Made by a program: the position numbers and the translations under genes. 60,549 bases of DNA from the NCBI GenBank assembly GCA_003218415.1, contig QHNK01000027.1:1-60549 (forward strand), read 5' to 3'. Origin of the DNA: Verrucomicrobiota bacterium (GTDB taxonomy: Bacteria > Verrucomicrobiota > Verrucomicrobiia > Chthoniobacterales > UBA10450). Below, one piece after another: positions 1-31,906 of this stretch. The notes under the pieces are model-generated. The model was given only the letters and a program-made list of their open reading frames with translations, had not been told where the DNA came from and searched no databases. The stretch's first letter is position 1. Every line of letters begins with the position of its first letter.

Positions 1-666
1 GCTGAGGGCTGGTCCGACAACGCATCCGATTTGAAAAACGCTGTTGTTCCAAGTGACCGCGTTCGCAAAGGCATCACGAGGAACCAGCGTCGGAAAAAAT
101 GAGCTGCGAGCTGCCCAACTGAACGTGCGCGCTATTGCTCCGAGGAAAAGGAGCAGATAAATCAACGGAATTGAAGCGTCGTCGAAATGGAACACCGGAT
201 GATGTCGCTCGAAAATCGCGGCAACTGACGCCAGCACGCGATTGCCTGCGCGCAGAGGCGCGAGCGGAGGAATGGCGAGATGTTTCCAGGAAACCAGCGC
301 AAGTGCGAGGGACGTGAGCCCGCTAAAGACCTGCGACACCAAGATGATGTGTTTCCGACTGAATCGATCTGCCAAGTGGCCGGCGGGCAGCGAAAGCGTA
401 ACCACAGGTACGGCGATCACCAGTCCAACAAGCCCGAGCGCAGTAGCAGAATGGGTGCGCGCGTAAATTTCCCATTCCACCGCTACGGCCAGCATGAGCC
501 GGCCGGTGATCGAGAGCAGATTACCAGCAGTGAACAGGCTGAAGTCCTCGAAGCGGAAAGCCGCGTAAGGATCATGCGGCCGGCGCTTCAATTCGATGGG
601 AGGTGTAACCGCCGGGCGTTCGCCTTCCGGCGATTCGTAGGATCTGGGGTCGATTGATCGCGGCAT
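1..666 (-). CDS. MFS transporter, N-terminal part (3' end beyond the left edge)
   Basis: Manual reverse translation from the ATG at 666: MPRSIDPRSYESPEGERPAVTPPIELKRRPHDPYAAFRFEDFSLFTAGNLLSITGRLMLAVAVEWEIYARTHSATALGLVGLVIAVPVVTLSLPAGHLADRFSRKHII... Open to the window edge. GHLADRFSRK is the MFS loop 2-3 motif. Confidence 0.85.
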   Translation of the reverse strand, partial: MPRSIDPRSYESPEGERPAVTPPIELKRRPHDPYAAFRFEDFSLFTAGNLLSITGRLMLAVAVEWEIYARTHSATALGLVGLVIAVPVVTLSLPAGHLADRFSRKHIILVSQVFSGLTSLALALVSWKHLAIPPLAPLRAGNRVLASVAAIFERHHPVFHFDDASIPLIYLLLFLGAIARTFSWAARSSFFPTLVPRDAFANAVTWNNSVFQIGCVVGPALS

Positions 667-875
667 GTTCGAGCGCGTTCGTTCGAACACGCGCACGAGA
701 TTGTAGGTTGAGCGGCCAGCACCGCAACCTGTGGCATCGGAGGACAGGAAGACCTCGATGCGCTAATCCTCCATTACAAAGGGTCCCCAGCGGACCTAAG
801 AAATTTGCACAAAACCTGCGGATTTTGCTTCCCTTCCACAAACCGGATGCGTAGAGTCGGCGGCCTCAGGCAAAA

Positions 876-1082
876 ATGGATAACATCATCGAGGCGAGAG
901 AACTGCAAATTGAACGCAAGCATTTCTACGTGGAGCTGCGCGAAAATGATCGCGGGAAATTCTTGCGCATCACCGAGGAAGCTCACGGACGCCGGAACAG
1001 CATCATCGTCCCCAGCACCGGCGTTGATGACTTTACGGCGATGATTGCTGAAGTTCTGACAAACGGAAGCGAGCCGCTGTAA
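876..1082 (+). CDS. Small PUR-alpha-like nucleic-acid-binding protein
   Basis: 68 aa; IERKHFYVELRENDRGKFLRITEE..GRRNSIIVPSTGVDDF resembles a bacterial PUR repeat. Confidence 0.7.
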   Translation: MDNIIEARELQIERKHFYVELRENDRGKFLRITEEAHGRRNSIIVPSTGVDDFTAMIAEVLTNGSEPL

Positions 1083-1270
1083 ATCGACGGGCAAACTAAT
1101 CCCAGCCGGTTTTGGCGGATGGTTTACGGTTTTGGGAAGGCATGACCATCTTCTGACTACGGCGCACTTGCCAGGCGCCGGAGCGCCGTAGGCGCGACAT
1201 GCATATAGTTACAGCAACACGAATCCAATAAGCTCCGTTAGGAGCGGCACGTGGAGGCGCACACGAAACG

Positions 1271-1390
1271 GCGAACACGAATGACGAATGAAGCACAAAG
1301 CACGAATGACCAAAACGCAGCGTCACAATTCCTTTGGTCATTTACTCATTCCTTCGAGCTTCGGCATTCGGATTTCGTCATTTTGTTGAA
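1271..1390. repeat. AATGACGAA/TCATTCG dispersed-type element, copy 1
   Basis: gcgaacacgaatgacgaatgaagcac...gagcttcggcattcggatttcgtcatt. Confidence 0.55.
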
Positions 1391-1576
1391 CATGTCGCTC
1401 CCATGGAGCTTTCCCGTCGACTTCTGCGATAGACTATAAACATTACGCTACCAACGCAGCTCGATTTTCGAAAACGTCACGAGGATATTGTTTGATTTGC
1501 TCACGCGTTGACACCGCGACGCCCGAAACTACCTTGGCGCTTTCCTGCATTTGACGCTCTTCCGGGCTCCTGAATC

Positions 1577-4381
1577 ATGGTCAGAAAAAGAAAATCCAGC
1601 TCACGAAAAGCAATTCGCCGTACGAGGACAAGGTCGACATCGAAGGCGCGCACCCGAGGTCGCGGAAAAACAACAAGAACGCCGCGCTACGTTTATTACT
1701 TCGGGGATGGCCACGCGGATGGATCAGGTAAGATGAAACCGCTCCTTGGCGGCAAGGGCGCGAACCTCCACGAAATGACCCGAATTGGTCTGCCCGTGCC
1801 GCCAGGATTCACGCTCACGACCGAGGTGTGCAGTTACTTTTACGATCATAACCGTATTTACCCGCCCCAATTGGAAGCTCAGGTAGCAAATGCGCTCGCT
1901 GGGGTTGAGAAATCGGTGGGAAAGAAGCTTGGCGACAAGGAGCGGCCTTTGCTCGTTTCCGTGCGCTCGGGTGCGCGTGATTCGATGCCGGGCATGATGG
2001 ACACCATTCTGAATCTCGGGATGAACGACGAAGTCGTCGAGATCGTCACAAAGAAAACGAACAACGCGCGTTTCGCCTGGGATTCGTATCGCCGTTTCCT
2101 GCAAATGTACGGCGACGTCGTGATGGGCGTTCAGAAACGGCCGGGCGAAGATCATGAGCCGTTCGAGACTGTAATCGAGTACTTGAAGGACGAGCGCTAC
2201 GGCAAGCACGATTTCCCGGATGTCAGATTAACTGTCGCCGACCTCAAAAAACTCGTGGACCGGTTCAAGGGGCTGATCGAGGAGCGCACCGGAAAATCGT
2301 TTCCCCAAGATCCGAACGAACAGCTCTGGGGCGCAATTGGGGCGGTTTTCGGCTCGTGGATGAACGATCGGGCGATCGTGTACCGGCGAAGATATGGAAT
2401 CCCGCACGATTGGGGCACTGCCGTGAATGTCCAGACGATGGTGTTCGGGAACATGGGTGAGACGAGCGCGACGGGGGTTGCATTTACACGGGATCCAGCG
2501 ACCGGCGAAAAAGTTTTCTACGGCGAATATTTGATCAACGCCCAGGGTGAAGACGTCGTTGCCGGTGTCCGCACGCCGCATCCCATTGCCGATCTGGCAA
2601 AGGAAATGCCCGCCGCCCACAAAGAGCTGATGAAAGTCCGAGCGATTCTTGAGAAGCACTTTAAGGACATGCAGGACCTCGAGTTCACCGTGGAGGAAAA
2701 CCGCCTCTACATTCTGCAAACGCGCAACGGCAAGCGCACCGGCCATGCCGCGGTCCGTATCGCGGTCGATATGGTCGATGAAAAATTGATCACGAAGAAA
2801 GACGCGGTCCGGCGTGTCCCGGCAGATTCGCTTGCGCATCTTTTGGCGCCGATTTTTGATCGGCAATCGGTTCGCGCCGCGAAGAAAATCGGCAGCGGTC
2901 TGGCCGCCGGCCCGGGCGCGGCGTGCGGTCGCGTCGTATTCAGCGCCGAAGAAGCCGTCATGCGCGCGGAAAGAGGTGAGAAAGTTGTTCTGGCCCGCAT
3001 TGAAACGTCGCCCGAAGACTTGCGTGGCATGATCGCGGCCGAAGGAATTCTGACCGCGCGTGGCGGCGTTTCCTCGCATGCAGCCCTGGTCGCGAGGCAA
3101 ATGGGGAAAGTGTGCGTGTGCGGCGCGACTGGAATCCAGATCGATTACCAGAACCGTACACTCAGCGCGAACGGCACGACGTTAAACCGGGGCGATTATA
3201 TTTCCATCGATGGAACCGCCGGCGAAGTGTTCGCCGGCGAAGTCGCTACTGCGCCCTCGGAGATTGTGCAAGTGCTGGTGGACAGGTCGCTCGACCCCAA
3301 GAAAAGCGTCACTTATCAGGAGTACGCGAAGTTGATGAAGTGGGCGGACGAATTTCGTGCGCTGGGCGTGCGCGCAAATGCCGATACGCCCGAGCAGGTC
3401 AAAAACGCTGTTGCGTTCGGCGCAGAGGGCATTGGGCTGACCCGCACCGAGCATATGTTTTTCGAAGGCGACCGGATTGACGCAATGCGCGAGATGATCC
3501 TCGCCGGAACGAAAGACGAGCGAGCGCGAGCGCTGGCCAAACTGCTTCCTTACCAGCGGGGCGATTTCATCGGCATCTTTACGGCGCTAAAAGGTTTGCC
3601 TGCGACGATCCGTTTTCTCGATCCGCCGCTCCATGAATTTTTGCCAAACGACGATGCGCAACAAAGTGAATTGGCGAACAAGCTTGGCGTCACCGCAGAT
3701 CAAATCGCGCGGCGCGTGCACGAACTTCACGAGTTCAATCCGATGCTCGGCCATCGCGGTTGCCGGCTCGGGATCACATTTCCTGAAATTTCCGAAATGC
3801 AGGCACGCGCAATTTTTGAAGCTGCGGTCGAAGTCCAGGCAAAGGGGATCAAGGTTCACCCCGAAATCATGATTCCGCTGGTGGGATTTCCGCGGGAACT
3901 GAAGCTTCAGATCGATATCGTTCGCCGTGTCGCAGGTGAGGTTGCAAAAGAAAGAGAAACCAAATTCAAATACCTGGTCGGCACAATGATCGAAATCCCG
4001 CGCGCCGCGCTCGTGGCCGACCAGATCGCGCGCGACGCCGAGTTCTTCAGTTTCGGCACAAACGATTTGACGCAGACCACACTTGGAATGAGCCGCGACG
4101 ACTCCGGCAGTTTTCTTCCAGCTTACGCCGAACTGGATATCGTGGACACAAATCCGTTCGCATCGATCGATCAGAAAGGTGTTGGGCGCTTAATGGAAAT
4201 TACGCGCGATCTCGGTCGCAAAACGCGCCCCGACATCAAGCTGGGAATTTGCGGAGAGCATGGCGGCGAACCTGCGAGCGTCAAATTCTGTCACAGCCTC
4301 GGCCTGAATTACGTCAGTTGCAGCCCGTTTCGAATTCCAATCGCACGATTGGCAGCGGCGCAAGCGGCGCTGGAGAGTTGA
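1577..4381 (+). CDS. ppdK: Pyruvate, phosphate dikinase
   Basis: 934 aa; [52 protein letters not shown] (phospho-His domain), [41 protein letters not shown]. Confidence 0.98.
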
Positions 4382-4437
4382 AGCGCGTGCTCCCGAACCA
4401 ACGCGCTAGCTAAAGCGGCGGCGTCAAGCCCCGCGCT

Positions 4438-4539
4438 GGAACATAGGCTTGCAGCCTGTGAGCCCAGCAGGTTTGCAACCCGCTGATCCTGAAGCGGACA
4501 ACATGTCCGCTGGTCACACAGGGCACAGCCCTATGTTCC
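4438..4539. repeat. Imperfect palindromic intergenic repeat made of four small hairpins
   Basis: GGAACATAGGCTTGCAGCCTGTG...CACAGGGCACAGCCCTATGTTCC terminal inverted repeat, with internal GCAGGTTTGCAACCCGC and GCGGACAACATGTCCGC. Confidence 0.75.
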
Positions 4540-4584
4540 ACTTGCAGCGCTTGCGTCAAATTTTCGATTCCATACCGTCAACCC

Positions 4585-28477: not shown

Positions 28478-31400
28478 CTACGCTCGCTTCGGCCCGCCAA
28501 GAAGATTTAGTTGCACCATGGCGATGTCGCCACTCTCGTTAAGCTCGAGATTCGCGATTTCAAACATGGGCGCGCCTTCGGCTGGGCCGGGTCCGGCGCC
28601 AGGCAACTGAACAACGACTTGCTTGGAGTTGGAATTTAGGATGACCGATGCAATTTCGAGTGACGGCGAAAACTCGAGCGTGCTGATCTGGAACGGAACC
28701 GTGATGAACACAGAGGCACGTCCCTGTGGTGACGGGGTGACTTGGACTGGCGCGGTCTCAGAATTGGGGACCAGTTGCAATCCTGCCACTGCGAATGACG
28801 GCATGCCAGTGAGAGTCGGTCTCTGTTGCTGGGAGGGAACCACGCGAATGGTGCCTAGCGCGCCAGCGACAGGCTGAATCTTCATGATTTCGAAGGCGAC
28901 CTGCAAATTCAACGCAGTCTGAGCGCGCTGAGGCGAAGGCAAACGCATCGTGACGAGCTTCGATATGGGACGCACTTTCAAGACACCCATCTTAAAGCTC
29001 GGCGTCAACTGCATGGCGGCGATCTCGAAAGAGAAAGTAAGCTGCACGGATGTTTGCATCGTGGCAGCAGGCGGTTGTGGCTTGGCTACCGGCGTGGCGG
29101 GGGCTTTGGTTATTGGAGCGGTTGGAGTTTGGGTTGTTTCTGGCATGGTTGCAGGTGTTGTTGTTTGCGGAAATACAGGCTCAGTGGAAATAGCATTTGG
29201 AAAATCAGACACGGACTCGGTAGTCGCTTCGCCCAGTGGAAATTGAGTCGCAGTTGCAATGATCTCGTGAGGTTGCTCTTGCGCGATCGGTTCAACTGCA
29301 AATTCTGTTGCCGGTTCTACGGCAGGCCATGCAAATTCTGCGCCCGAAAGCGTCTCCTCACTCGGCTCCTCCGAGGGCAATACGGATTCTTTCGCATCTC
29401 CGAAAAATTCGCTCGGTTCCTGCGTGGAGAATGTTACTTCCTCTCCATCTTCCGAGATCTCATCCGGCTTTTGCGGAGTGATCGTAGAAACTTCGGCAAA
29501 CTCACTGGTTGCTGAAGCTGTAGCCATTTCAGCAGCCTGCAAGATGGCTGGCCGCGAGATCTCCGGTGTTTGTTCGACTACTGTCCCCACAGATTCGAAA
29601 TCAGGCTCGGCAACCGGCGCCAATTCGCGGTCAGGCTCGCGACTGGCCGGGGCTCGTGAGGCCTTTGCTCTGCGTTCTTTCAATCGATCAAAAGCGCCGC
29701 TCAATTTGCCCGTAGGCACGGCAGTGTGTCGCAACGAAGCCTTCCACGGTTTTAATTGCACCGAAACCTGACGGGGGCCCCCAACAAAGCCGTTGTCTTG
29801 CACGCTACTCGTCTGCGCTGGCGCGACTCCCGGGTTGAATACGGCAGCGCCGCCGGCGGTACGCTCTGCGGGAGGCTCAAGCCGCAAGTGACGCGGGACG
29901 TTGAAAGCATGTCGGCGAACCACGGGCACGATCACCCAAGCCAGTATGATTATGGCCGCCAACAATAAGCCACCAGCAATCGCCAACCTTCGGCTCGCCA
30001 TGCCTGCAATGGTGGATGACGAGACGTTTGCGGTCGCTGGTCCCACAGCGGATTTCTCCGACGGACTTGTTTGAACAGAGAGCTGCTGATTGTTCTGTTC
30101 GTTAGAAGTAGACGGAGCCTGCGGCGTCTCGGCTCCTACAGCTTGCGCCGCAGTTGTCGATTCACCGCCAACCGGGGACGATTCGGATGCCGGTTGTTGT
30201 GGGTGCGAGTTGGTTTCCCCAGTTGACTCGCTCGAGGCCGAAGTCGGCTGTCCAGCTGTTGCGTCAGCACTGGCAATCTCCATCCCGGCATTTGGCCCCT
30301 TCAAACCTGGGCCCAAGGCCAGCGTTTCACTGTTCGACACTTCGCCTTGTTTGTTTGCAGCAAACACCTTGTCCGGAATAGGACTCGGCTCAACTGCCGG
30401 ACCGCCCTCCGTCTGGGGCGCAACAACATTTGTTGTGTCGAACGCCAGCGCAGGCGCCGTTGAACCTTCCGGCCTTTGCATCCAACCGACATCATAAAAA
30501 GCGTCGGCAAAAACAGTGTTAAGCGCCGGCGAGTAAATCTTGTTAGCCGAACTGGTCCAATCGGCGGCCTTCTCCGGATTGTTATGCTTATACTCCCACG
30601 CTGCCTGGGCATAATAAAGCGCCGGCGTATCTCCGGTAAATTGAAACTCCTCCATCATCGCGTGCGCGCGGCTCTCTTTTCCCTCGAGCAAAAGCGTCAT
30701 GTAAATCTTGAATTTAATAAGCTCCGCCGCCTGATTTTTATCGCCGCCCGGGATTCGATTATTAAGCCCCTCAAAACGCTCTCTCGCCTTTGCGTAGTCC
30801 TTCTTCTTAAAGGGGATTTGCGCGAGGTTGTATTGCGCTTCGCGAAGTTTCGGGTCCAGCCGGGCTGCCTTCTTAAATGCAGCTTCGGCTTGGTCAAATT
30901 GCTGCTGCTGCATCAGAATCTCGCCGCGTAAATTCAAAGTAGCCGGCTTATTCGGGTCCGCCTGGTCGGCCTCATCGATTAATTTAAGGGCTGTCGCGAA
31001 ATCACCTTGCCGAAGGGCCTGTTGCGATTGCTCGAATTTCGAACGCGCGGCCGCTTTGGTCTTTTCCGAGCGCTCTGCAGCTGTCATGAGCGGCAATGAA
31101 GGTCGCCCTTCGCCAGCCGGCTTTTCCAACCACCCGACTTCATAAAGTGATTCTGCAAAAAGTTTGTTCAGCTGCGGTGAATAATTCTTCTCGGCTGCGC
31201 TGATCCAATCTTTGGCTTCGCTTTGATTCTTCTGTTGTAGCGCGACCGCTGCCTTCACATAGTCAACGGCCGGCGTATCGGGCGAAAGCTCCAGCTTGGC
31301 CAGCATCGAATCCACCATGTTCCCTTTGCCCTCCTGCAGATACGTCAGAAGAATTTTGTATTGAATCAGCTGCGAAGCTTCTTTTGCCAGATCAGATTCA

Positions 31401-31906
31401 CCACTGGAGAGCAGTTGCTCAAAGCGTTTCCTCGCCTCCGCCCAATCTTTTTTCAGAAACGGTATCTCCGCCAGGTTAAAGCGCGCATTCCAAAACTTCG
31501 GATCGATTCGGGCCGCCTCTTGCAATGCTGCTTCCGCTTTGTCGTAATTGCCTTGTCGCATCAGGATGACGCCGCGCAGATTCTTTGACGCGGCAAGATC
31601 AGGCTGACGAGCATCAATGGCGTCGAGTTGCTTTAGCGCCTCCGAAAATTTCTTGGCATCAAACGCGCGATACGCCGCGTTGTACATCTCCTCCAACTCG
31701 GCTTTGGTCGGGGCGACATTGTCCGCCGCAAATGAATTTGCTGCGAACGAGCCCATTACCAGCGCGGCCACCGCCGTCATCCCCCAGAGTCTCATGCGGT
31801 AGCGACTGAAGCTCTGTTCAGCGCGTCTGACAAGTGGAAAGTTGCTCCTCCGAATCGATTTTTCAGCGGCCTTCGGAAAAAGCGCCAACCGCCTTGATCG
31901 CCTCAT
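28478..31906 (-). CDS. TPR protein with duplicated TPR blocks, TM helix and novel C-terminal repeats
   Basis: 1142 aa; two ~190-aa homologous TPR blocks; Ser/Thr/Glu/Pro-rich linkers; TM GGLLLAAIIILAWVIVPVV; C-terminal tandem repeats. Confidence 0.85.
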   Translation of the reverse strand: MRRSRRLALFPKAAEKSIRRSNFPLVRRAEQSFSRYRMRLWGMTAVAALVMGSFAANSFAADNVAPTKAELEEMYNAAYRAFDAKKFSEALKQLDAIDARQPDLAASKNLRGVILMRQGNYDKAEAALQEAARIDPKFWNARFNLAEIPFLKKDWAEARKRFEQLLSSGESDLAKEASQLIQYKILLTYLQEGKGNMVDSMLAKLELSPDTPAVDYVKAAVALQQKNQSEAKDWISAAEKNYSPQLNKLFAESLYEVGWLEKPAGEGRPSLPLMTAAERSEKTKAAARSKFEQSQQALRQGDFATALKLIDEADQADPNKPATLNLRGEILMQQQQFDQAEAAFKKAARLDPKLREAQYNLAQIPFKKKDYAKARERFEGLNNRIPGGDKNQAAELIKFKIYMTLLLEGKESRAHAMMEEFQFTGDTPALYYAQAAWEYKHNNPEKAADWTSSANKIYSPALNTVFADAFYDVGWMQRPEGSTAPALAFDTTNVVAPQTEGGPAVEPSPIPDKVFAANKQGEVSNSETLALGPGLKGPNAGMEIASADATAGQPTSASSESTGETNSHPQQPASESSPVGGESTTAAQAVGAETPQAPSTSNEQNNQQLSVQTSPSEKSAVGPATANVSSSTIAGMASRRLAIAGGLLLAAIIILAWVIVPVVRRHAFNVPRHLRLEPPAERTAGGAAVFNPGVAPAQTSSVQDNGFVGGPRQVSVQLKPWKASLRHTAVPTGKLSGAFDRLKERRAKASRAPASREPDRELAPVAEPDFESVGTVVEQTPEISRPAILQAAEMATASATSEFAEVSTITPQKPDEISEDGEEVTFSTQEPSEFFGDAKESVLPSEEPSEETLSGAEFAWPAVEPATEFAVEPIAQEQPHEIIATATQFPLGEATTESVSDFPNAISTEPVFPQTTTPATMPETTQTPTAPITKAPATPVAKPQPPAATMQTSVQLTFSFEIAAMQLTPSFKMGVLKVRPISKLVTMRLPSPQRAQTALNLQVAFEIMKIQPVAGALGTIRVVPSQQQRPTLTGMPSFAVAGLQLVPNSETAPVQVTPSPQGRASVFITVPFQISTLEFSPSLEIASVILNSNSKQVVVQLPGAGPGPAEGAPMFEIANLELNESGDIAMVQLNLLGGPKRA

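What the first reader, a model, noticed from the sequence alone, without database searches (positions are those of the whole stretch)
28478..31906. Large TPR protein with five-copy novel C-terminal repeat
Two ~190-aa TPR blocks are homologous (LRGVILMRQGNYDKAEAALQEAARIDPKFWNARFNLAEIPFLKKDWAEARKRFE vs LRGEILMQQQQFDQAEAAFKKAARLDPKLREAQYNLAQIPFKKKDYAKARERFE; both end in ..VGW.[EQ][KR]P.G...P). After a TM helix and a disordered-looking Pro/Thr/Glu-rich linker come repeats: VQLTFSFEIAAMQLTPSFKMGVLKV; LNLQVAFEIMKIQPVAGALGTIRV; PTLTGMPSFAVAGLQLVPNSETAPVQV; VFITVPFQISTLEFSPSLEIASVIL; GAPMFEIANLELNESGDIAMVQL. Approximate consensus FeIa.lql.ps.e.a.VqV. I know no family with this repeat.
Basis: partly seen in the sequence, partly recalled or inferred. 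Interest (0 to 1): 0.6.

Follow-up and report, generated by a model that had tools for sequence, protein, structure and literature searches.

The report
Membrane TPR protein with orphan tail domain
A soil bacterium (Verrucomicrobia, close to Candidatus Udaeobacter) carries a membrane-spanning scaffold protein whose inner end is a conserved, undescribed beta-rich domain; in most related genera the same domain also ends a two-component response regulator, which hints at a new adaptor domain in bacterial signalling.

Summary
The gene lies on the minus strand and really starts at Met38 (nt 31795): signal peptide, two homologous ~215-aa TPR blocks, disordered linker, one transmembrane helix, second disordered linker, and a ~195-aa C-terminal domain (CTD, residues 945-1142). 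The CTD repeat is real but hierarchical (A-B, C, A'-B'), not five equal copies. It is under strong purifying selection (dN/dS 0.07-0.18; linkers 0.27-0.50). No Pfam, NCBIfam or PDB family matches it. It occurs in nearly all genomes of one family of the order and some of a second, and nowhere else among Verrucomicrobiota sampled. In most non-Udaeobacter genera of the family it also ends a REC-PATAN-REC response regulator (25 of 25 second copies examined), which places it in the cytoplasm. In the second family the TPR and TM-linker-CTD parts are separate neighbouring genes. Best reading: a bitopic inner-membrane scaffold, TPR outside and CTD inside, the CTD being a protein-binding adaptor. Its partner is unknown, and Udaeobacter lacks the regulator version. 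Both AlphaFold runs were low-confidence (pLDDT 41, 54), so the fold stays open. The coaX linkage is conserved synteny without shown functional meaning.

The parts
28478..31795 (-). whole gene with the corrected start (Met38 of the listed ORF), 1105 aa plus stop
   Evidence: Met38 conserved in all 25 aligned sequences; stops or unrelated sequence upstream; dN/dS upstream about 0.5-1.3
31796..31906 (-). codons 1-37 of the listed ORF: most likely not protein-coding, spacer after coaX
   Evidence: not conserved, interrupted by stops in relatives, dN/dS about 0.5-1.3
31727..31795 (-). Sec signal peptide, residues 38-60 (MRLWGMTAVAALVMGSFAANSFA), likely cut before A61
   Evidence: sequence reading; hydrophobic N-terminus ending in SFA-A or similar in the orthologues
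31082..31726 (-). TPR block 1, residues 61-275, with VGWLEKPAG near its end
   Evidence: Pfam TPR families; homologous to block 2
30434..31081 (-). TPR block 2, residues 276-491, with VGWMQRPEG near its end
29987..30433 (-). variable linker 1, residues 492-640, with a conserved island PAVEPSPIPD at about 503-512
   Evidence: conservation profile and dN/dS 0.27-0.50
29927..29983 (-). transmembrane helix, residues 642-660
   Evidence: mean hydropathy 2.81; a TM at the equivalent place in the other 24 orthologues
29750..29782 (-). conserved motif GGPRQVSVQLK, residues 709-719, in linker 2
   Evidence: conservation profile
29075..29926 (-). variable Pro/Thr/Glu-rich linker 2, residues 661-944
   Evidence: dN/dS 0.33-0.44
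28481..29074 (-). C-terminal beta-repeat domain (CTD), residues 945-1142
   Evidence: dN/dS 0.07-0.18; homologues in two families and in other architectures
28937..29053 (-). CTD unit A, residues 952-990
   Evidence: repeat test
28823..28924 (-). CTD unit B, residues 995-1028
   Evidence: weak in this sequence alone, clear in relatives
28718..28819 (-). CTD unit C, residues 1030-1063
   Evidence: repeat test
28601..28717 (-). CTD unit A', residues 1064-1102
   Evidence: repeat test
28496..28594 (-). CTD unit B', residues 1105-1137
   Evidence: repeat test
   Evidence: gene order conserved across the family; family name not tested here

Best explanation
The gene encodes a bitopic inner-membrane scaffold. 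A signal peptide exports two TPR blocks to the periplasm, one transmembrane helix stops transfer, and a long disordered cytoplasmic tail presents a compact beta-repeat domain (CTD). The TPR superhelix most likely binds an envelope component and the CTD most likely binds a cytoplasmic protein, so the protein ties something outside the inner membrane to something inside it. In related genera the same CTD ends a REC-PATAN-REC response regulator, so phosphorylation could steer a soluble protein to the CTD's partner or to the CTD itself. Shown: architecture, corrected start, repeat, purifying selection, distribution, second architecture, split genes in a second family. Inferred: topology, cytoplasmic CTD, adaptor role. 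Not known: partner and process.
For: N-terminal signal peptide and one TM in 25 orthologues, mostly with more basic residues after the TM than before. The CTD is fused to REC and DUF4388/PATAN domains, which are cytoplasmic by general knowledge, in all 25 second copies examined, with the phospho-acceptor Asp and conserved Lys of both REC domains invariant in 25 of 25. In family f4, TM-linker-CTD genes lie next to TPR genes as separate genes (L100, L103, L107), a gene-fusion argument that the two parts act together; two of the stand-alone TM-CTD proteins (L048, L056) have no basic residue before the TM and one to three after it. CTD dN/dS 0.07-0.18 against 0.27-0.50 for linkers and 0.04-0.07 for TPR. 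CTD present in 24 of 25 genomes of the window's genus and 41 of 42 other genomes of the family.
Against: None of 35 genomes of the window's genus has the response-regulator version, so the regulator is not needed for what the TPR protein does there. The positive-inside signal is modest (typically 2-3 basic residues before, 3-4 after the TM), and the f4 TM-CTD proteins L100 and L102 give no clear signal. No partner, no reliable fold (pLDDT 41 and 54) and no biochemical data. In the genomes whose surroundings were read, the TPR-CTD gene is not next to the response-regulator gene.
Confidence: 0.45

Rival explanations
1. The CTD is a self-assembly domain: it polymerises or pairs with itself (TPR-CTD with TPR-CTD, or with the response-regulator CTD) and forms a membrane-attached lattice or hub; the TPR part organises the periplasm above it.
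For: Repetitive all-beta-looking domain with two related halves and an extra unit; a natural half-size version exists (L056); the same domain sits on a soluble and a membrane protein in the same genomes.
Against: No structure; the window's genus keeps the domain without the soluble partner; no polymer-forming family matched.
Confidence: 0.25
2. The CTD is a ligand- or nucleic-acid-binding output domain (like output domains of response regulators) and the TPR protein is a sensor that controls it from the periplasm.
For: Position as the C-terminal output of a REC-PATAN-REC protein.
Against: No known ligand-binding or DNA-binding family matches; the TPR protein has no kinase or other signalling domain among its Pfam hits.
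Confidence: 0.15
3. The CTD lies outside the cytoplasm: the protein is anchored with the tail in the periplasm or at the surface and the CTD binds the cell wall or outer membrane.
For: Repeats of short beta hairpins are common in exported proteins (general knowledge); the charge bias around the TM is modest.
Against: Signal peptide plus one later TM puts the tail inside; the same domain is fused to REC/PATAN response regulators; the one scanned for TM segments (L096) has none.
Confidence: 0.1

Closest known systems
FimV-type polar hubs (Pseudomonas FimV with FimL and PilG; FimV anatomy recalled from general knowledge, FimV-FimL-PilG link from PMC10519157)
   Same: A bitopic protein that joins periplasm and cytoplasm through a long linker and works with response regulators
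   Different: FimV has a periplasmic LysM domain and cytoplasmic TPR; here the TPR is on the periplasmic side, there is no LysM among the hits shown, and the cytoplasmic domain is an unrelated beta repeat
PATAN (DUF4388) response regulators such as PixG, PixE and LsiR of cyanobacteria (PMC7690835)
   Same: The second architecture, REC-PATAN-REC-CTD, contains REC and PATAN domains
   Different: The window protein has neither domain; I know of no cyanobacterial PATAN protein with this CTD (not tested); the window's genus lacks the regulator
TPR lipoproteins and exported TPR proteins PrsT, PilW, Tgl (NCBIfam TIGR02917, TIGR02521, NF033762)
   Same: Exported TPR repeats
   Different: All scores far below the curated cut-offs (94.6 vs 312; 61 vs 154; 48 vs 225); no lipobox seen in the signal peptide; only the TPR stretch matches

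Membership tests
TPR repeat superfamily | Significant match to TPR HMMs | tested here: met
   Pfam TPR_19 72.6 bits against cut-off 25, TPR_16 66.1 against 32.7
Any Pfam or NCBIfam family for the CTD | Match above the curated cut-off | tested here: not met
   none at E<=10 for the window CTD; among 16 members only isolated single-member hits, best E 0.045 Pfam and 0.013 NCBIfam
Protein of known structure for the CTD | Significant profile match in PDB | tested here: not met
   best E 0.26, not significant
PrsT / PilW / Tgl TPR proteins | Score above NCBIfam cut-off | tested here: not met
PATAN response regulator | REC plus DUF4388 domains in the window protein | tested here: not met
   none among the 25 of 28 families shown, nearly all TPR-type; met only by the second architecture in other genera
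FimV-type hub | Periplasmic LysM domain and cytoplasmic TPR | tested here: not met
   no LysM among the Pfam hits shown; TPR on the signal-peptide side
FimV-type hub | Polar localisation | not testable with these tools
   needs microscopy
Bitopic membrane protein with cytoplasmic CTD | Experimental topology | not testable with these tools
   only sequence-based inference

The most novel reading that the evidence does not exclude
The CTD is a new cytoplasmic beta-repeat adaptor domain, confined to two families of one Verrucomicrobia order, through which a periplasmic TPR scaffold and a phospho-regulated REC-PATAN-REC protein meet (directly, CTD to CTD, or on a shared partner): a new kind of transmembrane signalling link of which the Udaeobacter group has kept only the membrane half.
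Probability: 0.25. Interest if true: 0.6.

Novelty: new variant of a known kind. Interest (0 to 1): 0.4.

Why it matters
Udaeobacter-like Verrucomicrobia are among the most abundant soil bacteria and have streamlined genomes (general knowledge), yet this near-universal, strongly conserved protein has no recognisable domain beyond TPR. The domain's double use, on a membrane scaffold and on a response regulator, gives a concrete, testable handle on its function, and the profile built here could define a new domain family.

Tried and rejected
Five equal repeats: replaced by A-B, C, A'-B'. ORF start as gene start: rejected. PDB profile hits to epsilon-toxin chains (E 0.26-0.93) are not significant and were dropped. 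Viral contigs: no relative. Type IV pilus link through PilT: matches to the PilT family occur in 194 of 197 genomes, so it does not discriminate. The f4 proteins L101 and L102 were first taken for response regulators; Pfam shows no REC or PATAN in them. Extra CTD copies downstream of the gene in four genomes of the window's genus resembled the displaced-cassette layout of polymorphic toxins, but they are frameshifted, truncated or duplicated copies of the same domain, so this reading was rejected.

Full report
Observation. The window position 28478-31906 holds a minus-strand ORF of 1142 codons; the window is one contig (C75) of a 2.05 Mb draft genome. Relatives fetched from public genomes are Verrucomicrobia MAGs, one titled Candidatus Udaeobacter. 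TPR families match strongly and, among the families shown, nothing of another kind does beyond helical-repeat look-alikes. The two TPR blocks align over their whole length (score 445 against 38 +/- 6.5 for shuffles).

Start and anatomy. In an alignment of 25 sequences Met38 is present in every row, while codons 1-37 are unalignable or follow stop codons in several relatives. Nei-Gojobori dN/dS is about 0.5-1.3 for codons 1-37, 0.04-0.07 for the TPR region, 0.27-0.50 for the linkers and 0.07-0.18 for the CTD. The protein therefore most likely starts at nt 31795 with a signal peptide. One strong TM segment lies at residues 642-660, at the equivalent place in the other orthologues, usually with more basic residues after it than before it. 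Conserved islands in the linkers are PAVEPSPIPD (about 503-512) and GGPRQVSVQLK (709-719).

The repeat. Within the CTD, unit A (952-990) matches A' (1064-1102), A matches C, C matches B' and A' matches B', each beyond all 1000 shuffles; unit B is weak in the window sequence alone but clear in relatives. The domain is thus two halves (A+B and A'+B') with an extra unit C between them. L056 carries a half-size version, one A and one B unit, after a TM and linker, so a half may be a natural unit.

Known families. No Pfam hit at E<=10 for the window CTD, none of note in NCBIfam, and no significant PDB profile match. AlphaFold2 gave all-beta models at pLDDT 41 and 53.6, too low to use.

Distribution. 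With a 16-row CTD profile, 71 of 197 genomes sampled in the order have the domain: 24 of 25 in the window's genus, 41 of 42 in other genera of the same family (f1), and 6 in a second family (f4). Sampling 195 and then 388 genomes across the phylum found none outside these two families. Genomes outside the phylum were not searched with the profile; the peptide-pattern scan of all genome contigs with the whole window protein returned only Verrucomicrobia records, but it finds close relatives only.

Second architecture. Thirty-six of the 42 f1 genomes outside the window's genus have two or more CTD matches. One is the TPR protein. The second copies examined, in 25 genomes, are all REC-PATAN(DUF4388)-REC-linker-CTD (Pfam in four of them; blastp to the domains of L096 in the others). 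The acidic pair of the second REC, the phospho-acceptor Asp of both RECs (D70, D320 in L096 numbering) and the conserved Lys (K120, K372) are invariant in 25 of 25. In the three genomes whose surroundings were read (L096, L098, L104) a similar permease-like gene lies directly upstream; in L096 it is MacB_PCD plus FtsX by Pfam. In the CTD tree the six response-regulator CTDs sampled form one group (99/96). The window's genus lacks this protein: in 35 genomes the REC-PATAN-REC query found, among the matches listed, only weak hits over the second REC domain; weak DUF4388 hits do exist in some of these genomes.

Split genes. In family f4 the TM-linker-CTD protein is a separate gene next to TPR genes: L100 has the end of a TPR-block gene by eye (1-633, ending in the ESFYRIGW motif region), the TM-CTD gene (637-3402) and a converging TPR gene (3571-4551); L107 and L103 show the converging pair. 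Elsewhere in the order TPR-block proteins occur without the CTD; L060, for example, has a hydrophobic N-terminus, TPR, TM and a charged tail.

Neighbourhood. The order hemB, coaX, TPR-CTD, M29 peptidase, rsmB, UDP-glucose dehydrogenase, lptD is conserved in L038, L039, L097, L099 and, as far as contigs reach, in the other f1 loci. M29 is by Pfam; the other names are my reading of the sequences and were not tested (the lptD-like protein gave no Pfam hit at E<=0.001). The linkage to coaX is therefore conserved, but so is the whole block, and it carries no evidence of a functional tie.

Mechanism. The signal peptide places the TPR in the periplasm, the TM crosses once, and the CTD ends up inside; the same CTD on response regulators agrees with that. 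PATAN response regulators in cyanobacteria bind the pilus motor PilB (PMC10519157, PMC7690835), which shows that such proteins can act by protein contact; whether this applies here is unknown. I favour a protein-binding adaptor role for the CTD (0.45 for the whole reading), with self-assembly as the main rival (0.25).

Verdict. A real, conserved, undescribed domain on an otherwise ordinary TPR scaffold. Interest 0.4.

Noticed in passing
L041:8645-12058, L043:7465-15205, L053:6240-10859, L046:5168-5815: Four genomes of the window's genus carry extra CTD copies or remnants downstream of the TPR gene, some frameshifted or truncated. In L041, L043 and L053 a segment of several kb lies between, with a coiled-coil TM protein (TonB_C by Pfam in L041) and a small MerR/excisionase-like reading frame (by eye). 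The intact CTD in L041 and L043 is a divergent type.
   Followed up: partly
L043:10862-12371: A fragment of the M29 peptidase gene lies next to an extra CTD gene on the opposite strand, suggesting duplication of the TPR-CTD/M29 border region.
   Followed up: no
L100:633-637: A TPR-block gene end and the TM-linker-CTD gene are in the same frame, separated by one stop codon.
   Followed up: no
window:37453-39396 and window:41199-43385: Two further TPR proteins (C-terminal TPR after hydrophobic regions, the second with a weak PMT_2 hit) near the finding; ordinary.
   Followed up: partly
G058, G059, G064 and others: Most other genomes of the family hold several PATAN (DUF4388) proteins (commonly 3-7), while genomes of the window's genus hold none or one weak match: apparent loss of a regulator set.
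   Followed up: partly
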